Of a DNA stretch of 64,000 bases, positions 31,841 to 52,885 are shown piece after piece (the first letter of the stretch is position 1; every line of letters starts with the position of its first letter). The notes below the pieces were generated by a model, which saw nothing but the letters and a program-made list of their open reading frames with translations, was not told where the DNA came from and made no database searches. The stretch spans positions 66,219,669 to 66,283,668 of the forward strand of contig NC_133650.1 of NCBI RefSeq assembly GCF_009905375.1, in the 5' to 3' direction. The DNA comes from Apium graveolens (lineage: Eukaryota > Streptophyta > Magnoliopsida > Apiales > Apiaceae). Position numbers and translations under genes: made by a program.

Positions 31841-32936
31841 TGTTATTCACAAGGAACTAACAATGAGATTTACAGAAGAGGGGTTGAATGTAAATCTCAA
31901 AACTTTTTCAAGTTTTGAGCAGTTTCAAAAGCTTAGTGTATGATGAACAGATGTGTGTGAATTGCTTTGAGCAGGTGCAGAAATATGTATATTCAAGATA
32001 CAAATGTAAAGAACACAAAGGCTTTTAAAAACTTTTCTGGTGGATTTGTTGTTCCACCAGAGATGTGTATTTCAGAAAATATATGATACAAAGAATTGAT
32101 CACAGCTGCTTCCTAGTACAAACTAGATGATTTTCTCTCTATGTTTTTCTATACAGCTCTGGAAAATTCACATCTAATTACTAGCTGCAACTTGGTTTAT
32201 ATATTACCAAGTTTATAAGTGAAGACAAAGATAAAATACAATTATAAAATAGTTCTTCATATGTTTCTTCTTCATTTCTCTATCCAATGCAATCTAAGAT
32301 AATCTGTGAATCTTTGAATACTTCTTTGTTTGCACCAGAATGGAAATGCTGCTTTTTCTTGATTCCTCCAAGAGGCTACCACATTCCAATTGTCTCTGTC
32401 AACCCATGTGCCTCTGTCAGCTTATGAATTGTCACTATCAACTGCTATGGAACTAAACATCCGTTGAAGCTTTCATCCATTGATGGTTGTTATTCGTTGA
32501 TGCTTTAGTGACATCCGTTGATGCTTTAACAGTTGAAGCTTTATCCGTTGATGCACTCATCCATTGATGGATGTTATCCATTGAAGCTTTAGAGACATCT
32601 ATTGAAGCTTTTTTTTCTCATCCGTTGAAGGCCTTTAATCCATCAGTTGATACTACTTCATTTATACAAAATTACAAGGCATAAAATATTTACAATTAGC
32701 CCTCCTATTTGCATATCCACTAGTAATCAACATGACTTATAATTTCCCACAACTTCTAAGAATTATAACTTAAATGCAGAGACTGAAATGTGCTACAATA
32801 CTAAACTTATTTCTAAGTAAAGCTACTCCATCAACGGATAGCCAAAATGGTCTTATCCGTTGAGGCTACAAACACTAGATTTCTACTTAAGTGTTTTGTT
32901 TAACTTATCATCAAACTATTACATATATTCCTAAAA
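31841..32936 (-). repeat. SIRE 3' LTR
   Basis: On the minus strand it starts TTTTAGGAATATAT (normally TGTTAGG, so the terminal TG is mutated) directly after the purine tract, and ends GAATAACA at 31841, about 1096 bases. TGTTA/TAACA ends support the borders. It has six exact ATCCGTTGA words plus about eight one-base variants, most in one cluster at 32459-32660. Confidence 0.7.
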
Positions 32937-32950
32937 ATCTCCCCCTATTT
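32937..32950 (-). other. SIRE polypurine tract
   Basis: On the minus strand AAATAGGGGGAGAT directly precedes the LTR start. Confidence 0.8.
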
Positions 32951-33125
32951 ATGTCTACTAGAATTGTAGGCATAAATTCAGGGTTAACTTGATGATAACA
33001 AAACACTTAACAGATATATGAGTTGAAATTAAGTAGAAATTCAAAAGTGCTGCAAAAGTGTATGTACTGAGATAGAATTGAAGATTTACAGTGTTTCCAA
33101 GGGGTGCTCCTTTAGTCTGAGTAAA
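32951..33125 (-). other. SIRE short non-coding spacer
   Basis: About 175 bases between the stop of the env-position ORF and the purine tract. I see nothing else in it. Confidence 0.5.
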
Positions 33126-50926: not shown

Positions 50927-50931
50927 GAATT
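50927..50931. repeat. Target site duplication of element C, right copy
   Basis: GAATT follows CCATAACA and matches 41320-41324. Confidence 0.95.
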
Positions 50932-51209
50932 GAAGGAAATAGTATTCCCTTTATCACATAATTGACTGATGCTCAATAGATTGTGCTTGAGACCATCAAC
51001 TAATGCAACTTCATCAATGATGAAATTTTCCTTTAAAATCAAGCCATATCCCATAGTGAACCCTTTGTTGTCATCTCCAAAGGTTATGCTAGGGCTTGCT
51101 CTCTCCTTGAACTCTATGAGCAGGGTGAAATCTCCTGTCATGTGCCTTGAACATCCACTGTCCAAGTACCATAGATTCCTTCTTTTTCCCTGCACACAAC
51201 AAAATCAAA
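50932..51209 (-). pseudogene. pol: SIRE protease
   Basis: The minus-strand frame 51195-50932 holds the aspartic protease motif LDSGCSRHMTGD (about 51165-51130), then GLKHNLLSISQLCDKG, a conserved block after copia proteases. It cleaved the polyprotein. The frame crosses the insertion site of C and continues at 41319, so the gene was split by C, not by its own decay. Confidence 0.82.
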
Positions 51210-52885
51210 TCAAGTTGATTTTGGTACCCAAGTTTCCTTGAGTCCAGCCTTGTTAGTCTTTTTCCTAGACTTCACACTTCCTGCACCTTTTGACTTAGGT
51301 AACTTTGAGTCAACCTTGATCTCATATGTAGTTGGTTGAAGTGTAGGGTTAGTCACAGAATCATTTAGCGCATTTGGTTGAATTTGATAAGGCATAGATT
51401 GTGTAAACATTTTATTCCATATAGGCATGTTGTATGGCATTTGAGGCATACTAAATGCAGCAAAATAATGATTATTAACATATGGCATGTTTGCAAAATG
51501 TGCATGAGGATTCTGTTGAGACATAACAGGCATAGCATGCAGTGGTGACATAGACATGTTAGGCATAGAAGGAGTTAAAAGCATGGGAGCATTCTTAACA
51601 GATTTGCAGTTAGCAGATAGATGATTAACACTACTACAATGCACACAACTTTTTCTAGGAGCATACTTATCAGGTGTGTAATTGTTGTGTTTGTTAATCC
51701 CTACCTTCCCATTTATATTAGATTTTCATTTAGTTTCCTTTTTATCCTCAACCAACTTAAGCCTATTTTTCAACTGATCTAAAGTCATGTGTCCTATATT
51801 CACCTTATTGGCATCTTTGGATTTGCTAGCTTCTTCTTTGACAAAGTTCTTGGAAGTTGAACCAAACTTCTTACTGAGATTTTTCAAATTATTCCTTTTA
51901 GAATCATTTGCCTATTTCAATTGATGAGCCTTCAATGGATGCTCTATTTCTTCCTTCAACGGATGACTTTCATCATCCGTTGATTCCACGTCCGTTGACA
52001 GTCCATCAATTAATTCTATTTCCTTTTTGTTTTTCTTCCAGGCATTCTCACAGAGTGATTCAATTCCTTAAACCTTGACAATTTGAGCACTAACATCCCT
52101 AGATGTTTTCTAGGCCTTGATTACCTCTTGCTCACGTTCTAGTTGTCTAGAAAGAACTTCTACTTTCTTAACAGACTCTTCTAGTTCACTCTCAACAGAT
52201 AAGCATTTGATTTTAATCTTTTCAAGCTCAATTACCTTACCCTCTAACACAGCATTCCTATCACTTAAAAACAAATTATTCTCTTTAATTCTTGTGTTTT
52301 CTTTAGCCAGTGATTTAAGGGAAACACGTAAATGATATAATTCATTGGATATATCATTTATAGCTTCATTGCATTCATTTTGAGAAAGCTGAGAGAGGTC
52401 AGTAGTAATTACCTGATTGCTTGATGAACTAGTTTCATTTTTATCAGAATTAGCCATCAGGGCTAAGTTGACATACTCCATATCATCATCTTCATTGGCT
52501 CCATCAGCTGCCCAGTCATTTTCCTGAGTTATAAAAGCCCTTTCCTTTTGTTTGAGCAATTCAAAATATTTCTTTTTGTAATCCACTTGCTCAAATCTCT
52601 TCTTTTCAAAAGTTGGCTTTCTGCACTCACTTGCAAAGTGTCCACTTGTGCCACAGTTATAATACTTGAACTTAGATTTGTCCACCATGTTCTTATTTGG
52701 CTTAGTGGCTCTAATGTTTTTCTTGAATTTCATCTTTGCAAACCTTATGGACAGAAAAGCCAGATGTTCATCAACATCATCAGAGTCATCTTGACTGGAA
52801 TTGTCTTCAACCTCAGCTGCTTGCTCCTTTCCCTTGCTTGATTTTGATTTGCTTGTGCCAATTTTGAGACTTGGCAGTTTGAGAC
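51210..52885 (-). pseudogene. gag: SIRE gag, N-terminus missing, broken
   Basis: Minus-strand pieces 52885-52110 and 51644-51210 plus the decayed stretch between. The first has a decayed knuckle YYNCGTSGHFASEC (first Cys replaced by Tyr, near 52660) and a long coiled coil (LYHLRVSLKSLAKENTRIKE to KKVEVLSRQLEREQEV). The second begins with an intact CX2CX4HX4C knuckle (CVHCSSVNHLSANC near 51645-51600) followed by a Met/Pro/Asn-rich stretch leading into protease. Two knuckles flanking a coiled coil are usual in SIRE gag. The capsid-like N-terminal half is absent beyond the junction at about 52885. Confidence 0.78.

What the first reader, a model, noticed from the sequence alone, without database searches (positions are those of the whole stretch)
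31841..52885. A 9-base word, ATCCGTTGA/TCAACGGAT, dispersed through the whole SIRE element
I count at least 21 exact copies on both strands: 32459, 32513, 32543, 32620, 32831, 32855 (LTR); 35918, 35934, 35960, 36008, 36024 (env-position ORF); 38029, 38054, 38136 (spacer); 40032, 40051, 40075, 40099, 40133 (integrase-RT linker); 51956, 51975 (gag). Many one-base variants surround them. In about 11.4 kb of SIRE DNA chance predicts about 0.1. I noticed none in the other elements. The word contains AACGG, the core of the plant mitosis-specific MSA element bound by three-repeat MYBs, and CCGTTG fits the CNGTTR MYB core; a link to host cell-cycle factors is inference.
Basis: partly seen in the sequence, partly recalled or inferred. 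Interest (0 to 1): 0.9.

Follow-up and report, generated by a model that had tools for sequence, protein, structure and literature searches.

The report
CpG-bearing repeat word in plant retrotransposon
A broken jumping gene, probably from a carrot-family plant, carries 21 copies of one nine-letter DNA word that hold over half of its few remaining CG pairs and look like a wider-spread version of the palindromic boxes already described in Sirevirus elements.

Summary
ATCCGTTGA/TCAACGGAT occurs 21 times in the window, all inside the SIRE element, against 0.37 expected in the window and at most 1 in any of 1000 shuffles of the element. One coordinate is wrong (40133 is 40123).

The word is best read as the arm of the Sirevirus "repeated motif" (RM) of Bousios et al. 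2010 (PMC2829016): CGG-CCG palindromes in the LTR and 5' of env. What differs: clusters also sit in gag, the integrase-RT linker and mid-env, in different codon phases, and the LTR copies are mostly direct half-sites.

Strongest new point: the element is almost CpG-free (38 CpG in 11,440 bp), and 21 of the 38 lie in the word; outside it, 17 against 385 expected. The loss looks older than this copy. Matching peptide units recur at the same places in many, not all, related plant proteins. So the word was probably kept by selection on DNA.

Most likely it is a recognition site for a host DNA-binding protein; a MYB is plausible. The cell-cycle (MSA/MYB3R) link is unproven: the core fits, the extended consensus does not. 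No other DNA copy was seen: the genome search did not complete.

The parts
31841..41321 (-). 3' part of a truncated SIRE (Sirevirus, Ty1/copia) element: integrase, IN-RT linker, RT, spacer, env-position ORF, 3' LTR
   Evidence: Pfam RVT_2, SH3_retrovirus, weak rve_3; LTR end, PPT and integrase-signal-like sequence read; other edge from the nested element's LTR matches; the exact edge is 41324 if GAATT is counted, 41321 was used in the counts
50927..52885 (-). 5' remnant of the same element (gag side with zinc knuckle), beyond the nested insert; the 5' LTR was not found in the window
   Evidence: zf-CCHC; GAATT on both sides of the insert; no second copy of the LTR in the window self-comparison
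31841..32936 (-). 3' LTR; poly-C integrase-signal-like CATTCAACCCCTCTTCTGTAAATC near its end; PPT octamer AGGGGGAG just outside at 32939-32946
32459..32650 (-). LTR word cluster, about 286-477 bp into the LTR: 4 exact copies and 5 one-mismatch copies, all in the same direction (sense TCAACGGAT)
32831..32863 (.). LTR inverted pair of exact words (palindrome)
   Evidence: fold of 32825-32870 z -3.97
35918..36032 (-). word cluster inside the env-position ORF: 5 exact and 1 variant forming three inward-facing pairs, read as STD/SMD and HPL/YPL
   Evidence: fold of 35905-36040 z -6.46
37967..38160 (.). non-coding word cluster upstream of the env-position ORF (start 37790): 3 exact and 5 variants, six of them in three inward-facing pairs
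   Evidence: fold of 38085-38165 z -5.11
40009..40155 (-). integrase-RT linker cluster: 5 exact and 2 variants, mostly a 24-bp direct array, read as SVE/SVD (one STD)
   Evidence: fold of 40000-40140 z -3.01
51932..51998 (-). gag-side cluster downstream of the zinc knuckle: 2 exact and 2 variants, read as STD and HPL
   Evidence: fold of 51925-52005 z -3.05
35178..37790 (-). env-position ORF pieces 36093-37790 and 35178-36065, in one phase and separated by an in-frame stop; the mid-env cluster lies at the start of the second piece
   Evidence: P0001 carries residues matching both stretches in one protein
32936..35177 (-). 2,242 bp of the element with no CpG and no exact word (one single-mismatch copy at 33699)

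Best explanation
The word is the recognition unit (half-site) of this Sirevirus family's repeated motif. In its fuller form two words face inward as a 25-bp palindrome, TCAACGGAT-N7-ATCCGTTGA, with the CGG...CCG core of the RM boxes described by Bousios et al. 2010. It most likely acts in cis as a docking site for a host sequence-specific DNA-binding protein that sets transcription from the LTR and perhaps from sites 5' of and inside gag, pol and env. The protein would contact the CG-bearing core CAACGG, which fits a MYB type I site (YAACKG, recalled). Over the active life of the family, CpGs mutated away nearly everywhere, most simply by deamination of methylated C, while those in the word were kept by selection or were protected by the bound protein. 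Shown: sequence, counts, codon phases, CpG pattern, peptide units in relatives. Inferred: DNA-level selection, methylation as the cause of CpG loss, protein binding, the identity of the protein, and the effect on transcription.
For: Counts far beyond shuffles. The word occurs in non-coding LTR and spacer and in coding DNA in different phases: STD and HPL/YPL in gag and env, SVE/SVD with one STD in the IN-RT linker, so one peptide cannot explain it. Of 38 CpG in 11,440 bp, 21 are in the word; outside, 17 against 385 expected, o/e 0.044. In the ten reading-frame stretches examined, ACG is used 4 times in words and in 2 of 148 Thr codons elsewhere; CCG 4 times in words and in 1 of 120 Pro codons elsewhere. 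CpG loss looks ancestral: in 16 alignments with relatives (80% identity or more, 80 or more residues), 7 of 294 amino-acid differences fit CpG decay in this copy. 17 of 20 one-mismatch copies in the SIRE are changed at the CG itself. Env proteins: 13 of 17 that reach the region keep three or more STD/SMD or HPL/YPL units; over the 16 alignable ones motif columns match the window in 208 of 279 cells against 191 of 554 for other columns. Linker proteins: 17 of 21 with 95 residues upstream of the anchor, and 19 of all 32 anchored, keep two or more S[TM]D/SV[DE] units; 77 units in all against 6.1 on average and 14 at most in residue shuffles. Gag: 7 of 12 reaching the region keep two or more units. 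RM features match: LTR position, 5' of env, copy number, CGG-CCG core.
Against: The main LTR cluster and most of the linker array are direct repeats, not palindromes, unlike the RMs of the paper. The TATA box is not where the paper puts it. Some relatives that reach the region lack the units: env P0011, P0020, P0029 none and P0008 one; gag P0044 and P0085 none, three with one; linker 13 of 32 with fewer than two, some because little sequence is present. Conservation in relatives is at protein level only; no second DNA copy was seen, and the relatives share descent, so they are not independent cases. A neighbouring copia stretch is equally CpG-poor and has no such word. No binding or expression data.
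Confidence: 0.6

Rival explanations
1. RNA or single-strand hairpins are what is selected or recognised: inward-facing words make stems that act in the element's RNA, or are cut into small RNAs that start host silencing, as proposed for palindromes in maize Sirevirus LTRs.
For: Five of six cluster stretches fold better than shuffles (z -6.46, -5.11, -3.97, -3.05 with 0 of 200 shuffles as good, and -3.01 with 2 of 200). 8 of 9 CpG transitions are C to T on the element's sense strand, which keeps a G-U pair. An excess of small RNAs at maize Sirevirus palindromes is reported (passages).
Against: The stretch of the main LTR cluster that was folded (32450-32590) has words in one direction and folds little better than shuffles (z -1.17, 23 of 200 as good). 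The linker is mostly a direct array. Stems need complementarity, not one fixed word repeated with its CpG in five places. Host silencing alone would not favour keeping the word.
Confidence: 0.2
2. MYB3R proteins bind the words as MSA elements and tie the element's transcription to G2/M.
For: AACGG core in 21 of 21 copies; known MYB3R targets carry clustered AACGG in both orientations near the start site (passages).
Against: No full MSA consensus (recalled) in the window; two consensus positions are fixed to other bases in 21 of 21. AACGG/CCGTT occurs 24 times in the SIRE and also 41 times in the rest of the window, so the core alone says little. The core also fits many R2R3-MYBs (recalled).
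Confidence: 0.15
3. Peptide-level selection: Ser-Thr-Asp and His-Pro-Leu or Ser-Val-Glu repeats matter to the proteins, and the DNA word follows.
For: Units recur in related proteins.
Against: Copies also lie in the non-coding LTR and spacer; different peptides in different genes; CG codons otherwise rare in the element are used for them.
Confidence: 0.03
4. Neutral spread: tandem slippage and reverse-transcriptase template switching multiplied one word, and CpGs survive because the arrays are young.
For: The linker is a 24-bp tandem array and the 38.1 kb stretch repeats with a 42-bp period.
Against: Flanks of the 21 copies are mostly dissimilar apart from the following purine and a tendency to C two bases before; the clusters look old, as matching peptide units occur in Heracleum and Apium proteins.
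Confidence: 0.1

Closest known systems
Sirevirus repeated motif (RM) boxes, Bousios et al. 2010, PMC2829016 (passages and sections 6, 9, 10, 16 seen)
   Same: High-copy CGG-CCG unit, dyad symmetry in several clusters, in the LTR 200-400 bp from its start, 5' of env, main holder of CpG
   Different: Sequence TCAACGGAT is not in the paper's Table 3; LTR copies mostly direct half-sites; extra clusters in gag, IN-RT linker and mid-env; longer gap between arms; almost CpG-free background; TATA box farther away
[quoted passage not shown] 2016; not held, known only through passages of PMC5311732 and PMC10760457)
   Same: Palindrome clusters in the LTR regulatory region, predicted secondary structure
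   Different: Motif there is CACCGGACNNNGTCCGGTG; small-RNA data not available here
MSA element bound by MYB3R (PMC8964727, PMC10905365, passages)
   Same: AACGG core in clusters, both orientations
   Different: Extended consensus not met; binding untested

Membership tests
Sirevirus RM box | CGG-CCG core | tested here: met
   CGGAT...ATCCG
Sirevirus RM box | Palindromic dyad symmetry | tested here: inconclusive
   Inward-facing pairs in env, pre-env, gag and one LTR pair; not in the main LTR cluster nor most of the linker array
Sirevirus RM box | At least eight copies, LTR copies clustered in the upper half | tested here: met
   21 exact copies, 6 of them in the LTR; main cluster about 286-477 bp into the LTR
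Sirevirus RM box | Copies 5' of env in env-bearing elements | tested here: met
   37967-38160, upstream of the ORF starting at 37790
Sirevirus RM box | Clusters form CpG islands | tested here: inconclusive
   21 of 38 CpG lie in words; formal island criteria not applied
Sirevirus RM box | TATA box shortly (on average 37 bp) after the cluster's island | tested here: not met
   The TATATAAA downstream is about 256 bp from the last word and a TATAAA about 240 bp (read by eye); a TATAAAT lies upstream of the cluster
Sirevirus element | PPT octamer AGGGGGAG next to the 3' LTR plus further copies | tested here: met
   32939 and 34794, 35285, 35676 on the sense strand; the further copies lie 1.8 kb or more from the LTR, whereas 83% are within 0.5 kb in the paper
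Sirevirus element | AT/TG attachment site | tested here: not met
   AT/TT here, one base off
Sirevirus element | Inverted repeat around the PPT/LTR junction and poly-C integrase signal | tested here: met
   read by eye; no score computed
Sirevirus element | PBS and 5' LTR junction | not testable with these tools
   5' LTR not in the window
Sirevirus element | RT phylogeny within the Sirevirus clade | not tested
   RVT_2 match only
MSA element (MYB3R) | AACGG core | tested here: met
MSA element (MYB3R) | YCYAACGGYYA consensus (recalled) | tested here: not met
   0 matches in the window
MSA element (MYB3R) | MYB3R binding and G2/M activity | not testable with these tools
   none

The most novel reading that the evidence does not exclude
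The family has lost nearly all CpG except in one word planted in the LTR, gag, IN-RT linker, pre-env spacer and env, so that the words are its main remaining substrate for inherited CG methylation. They would then be methylation-sensitive docking sites for one host factor, used along the whole element and not only in the promoter: a distributed on/off address.
Probability: 0.2. Interest if true: 0.75.

Novelty: new variant of a known kind. Interest (0 to 1): 0.5.

Why it matters
The 2010 paper left the function of Sirevirus RM boxes open and asked for reporter tests (section 9). A family in which the box reduces to a nine-base word, lies in three coding regions in different codon phases, and holds 21 of 38 remaining CpGs gives an unusually clean signal of selection on DNA, and a defined bait for finding the host factor. 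It also offers a test of whether plant retroelements keep regulatory CpGs while the rest decays.

Tried and rejected
Exact palindrome pattern in viral contigs and genome contigs: 3 and 5 stretches, each with only the one pair that the pattern itself demands; taken as chance, no clusters. RT piece in viral contigs: no relative. Env piece in plasmids: no match. Literature by the word itself: 733 and 2,845 papers, of which only the 20 listed each were seen, and nothing on retroelements was noticed among them. Searches for Sirevirus with palindrom, Apium, MYB and binding site, and CpG and repeated motif gave 13, 1, 3 and 1 papers; in the passages opened, none describes this word. A CpG-depletion search found no paper. 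A search on Tto1, MYB and LTR motifs was seen as a listing only and not used. Peptide-only selection was rejected because of the non-coding copies. An NTD-encoding word AATACTGAT in the second copia element was looked at and left: five copies, itself 0-2 in shuffles, but 71 of 1000 shuffles of that stretch have some 9-mer with five or more. First CpG and shuffle counts used too short a SIRE edge (40915) and were redone with 41321; the number of CpG did not change. A first env conservation count took only 13 proteins that carry the motif (185 of 225 motif cells against 175 of 466), which flatters the result; it was redone with 16 that reach the region (208 of 279 against 191 of 554).

Not achieved: counting the word in other DNA copies of this genome; the genome search 'own' was unanswered 14 times. 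The pattern sent there had a gap of nine where the main palindromes have seven, so an answer would have been of limited use.
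Full report
Check of the observation. The word ATCCGTTGA/TCAACGGAT occurs 21 times in the window, 11 in one orientation and 10 in the other, every copy inside the stated SIRE element. Twenty of 21 coordinates are exact; 40133 should read 40123. Whole-window shuffles give a mean of 0.37 and a maximum of 2 in 100. Because the word was chosen after looking, the fairer control is the commonest 9-mer of any kind in shuffles of the SIRE alone: it never exceeds 13 in 1000, and the commonest CG-containing 9-mer never exceeds 3 (11 and 4 in an earlier run with a shorter edge). 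A further 20 one-mismatch copies lie in the SIRE and one elsewhere.

What the element is. It lies on the minus strand: 3' LTR 31841-32936, env-position ORF, spacer, RT, linker and integrase to about 41321. Then follows a nested gypsy-type element ('Tat-type' is my reading of its ORFs by eye; no family search was made) whose two LTRs match at 99.8% and which is flanked by GAATT on both sides. No 5' LTR was found. Pfam finds RVT_2, retroviral SH3, a weak integrase match and a zinc knuckle. Sirevirus hallmarks seen: the AGGGGGAG polypurine octamer four times on the sense strand, an inverted repeat around the PPT/LTR junction and a poly-C integrase-signal-like sequence (read by eye). Against: AT/TT instead of AT/TG at the attachment site, and the extra PPT copies lie farther from the LTR than usual. 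The host is probably in the carrot family, since the named relatives of the env-position ORF come from Apium, Heracleum and Daucus, apart from one record labelled Klebsiella; many hits are unnamed.

Anatomy of the word. There are five clusters: LTR; mid-env; spacer 5' of env; IN-RT linker; gag. The copies share nine fixed bases followed by a purine in 21 of 21. Pairs facing inward with starts 16 bases apart occur twice in mid-env and, counting variants, twice in the spacer; other inward pairs have other gaps. In the LTR the main cluster is nine copies (four exact, five variant) in one direction, and the linker is mostly a 24-bp direct array. The half-site, not the hairpin, is common to all five. 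The codon reading differs: STD and HPL/YPL in gag and env, SVE/SVD with one STD in the linker, none in the LTR and spacer. The word was therefore kept as DNA and not as a peptide (inference).

CpG. The element has 38 CpG in 11,440 bp against 401 expected; 21 are in the word and a few more in one-mismatch copies (list). Outside the exact word there are 17 against 385 expected, with TG (881 against 675) and CA (824 against 611) in excess by 419 together, somewhat more than the 368 lost, so conversion of CpG is the simplest cause. A 2,242-bp stretch has none. Was this decay after insertion? In 16 alignments with relatives of at least 80% identity and 80 residues, only 7 of 294 amino-acid differences fit a CpG lost in this copy, against 66 that fit other C-to-T or G-to-A changes (the control class has more possible sites, the alignments overlap in ancestry, and relatives may have lost the same sites). 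The loss is therefore mostly older than this copy (inference). In the ten stretches read, ACG and CCG codons stand in words 4 and 4 times and elsewhere in 2 of 148 Thr and 1 of 120 Pro codons. Of the 20 variants, 17 are changed at the CG itself; 9 are CpG transitions and 4 are the G-to-T change that keeps a MYB type I site. The last point is weak (nominal P 0.006, not corrected), and part of it is synonymous in the linker.

Relatives. Three protein searches with open pieces gave 31 env, 58 gag and 34 linker/RT proteins. Env: 17 of 31 reach the region (16 by an anchor, and P0020 by eye). 13 of 17 keep three or more STD/SMD or HPL/YPL units, among them Apium P0001 and Heracleum P0007, P0010, P0016 and P0018; P0008 (Apium) has one, and P0011 and P0029 (Heracleum) and P0020 (Daucus) have none. 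In the 16, motif columns are identical to the window in 208 of 279 cells and other columns in 191 of 554; 70 units were counted against 3.6 on average and 10 at most in residue shuffles. Gag: 12 of 58 reach the region; 7 of 12 keep two or more units (P0037 and P0087 Apium, P0049 and P0078 Heracleum, P0039, P0071 and P0072 unnamed), 3 keep one and 2 none. P0039, P0049, P0071 and P0078 have the STD-x2-HPL/YPL spacing that the 25-bp palindrome would encode; the Apium ones do not. Linker: 32 of 34 hits had an anchor, and 19 of 32 keep two or more units; of the 21 with a full 95 residues upstream, 17 do; 77 units against 6.1 on average and 14 at most in shuffles. A close group (P0092, P0093, P0095, P0096, P0103) has none or one. 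Related proteins share descent, so the shuffles show that the units are no accident of composition, not that they arose many times. These are peptides; the DNA behind them was not seen.

How it works. The best reading is a cis-acting docking site for a host DNA-binding protein, the Sirevirus RM in a half-site form. Hairpins are the main rival: five of six folded stretches beat their shuffles, but the stretch of the main LTR cluster does not (z -1.17). 8 of 9 CpG transitions are C to T on the sense strand, which would keep G-U pairing; this favours the RNA rival a little, though three of the eight lie in one LTR array. The MYB idea is plausible from CAACGG; the MSA/MYB3R form is neither supported nor excluded.

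Comparison with what is known. Bousios et al. 2010 (passages, and sections 6, 9, 10 and 16) describe RM boxes in 13 elements: palindromic, CGG-CCG core except in Tnd-1, 8-32 copies, 92% of the LTR copies in the upper half, 97% of the linker-domain copies upstream of env, a few at the start of env in two elements, and mostly marking CpG islands. Predicted islands outside LTR and env occur twice there, in pol of Osr9 and Osr8. This element fits most of it. RM clusters in gag or between IN and RT are not in the sections seen. Supplementary files could not be opened, so I cannot say that such clusters are absent from print; searches showed none in what I opened.

Verdict. A real and strong observation, ordinary in kind (Sirevirus RM) but unusual in spread and in CpG pattern. 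Without a second DNA copy the generality is unproven.

Noticed in passing
52886-56330: A second, decayed copia element on the + strand has only 7 CpG in this stretch and no exact copy of the word; it carries AATACTGAT five times, all in one direction.
   Followed up: partly
32936-35177: 2,242 bp of the SIRE, including a 567-codon ORF, without a single CpG.
   Followed up: yes
41325-50926: Nested gypsy-type element with 99.8% identical LTRs, flanked by GAATT; 41322-47789 matches 10831-17348 at 94%.
   Followed up: partly
49642-50243: A 40-bp tandem array of about 15 copies inside the nested element.
   Followed up: no
P0024: A protein filed under Klebsiella pneumoniae on a 1.5-kb contig is a relative of the plant env-position ORF, most likely plant DNA in a bacterial assembly.
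   Followed up: no
52863-52891: A short 15-bp repeat at the gag-side break where the SIRE meets the second copia element.
   Followed up: no
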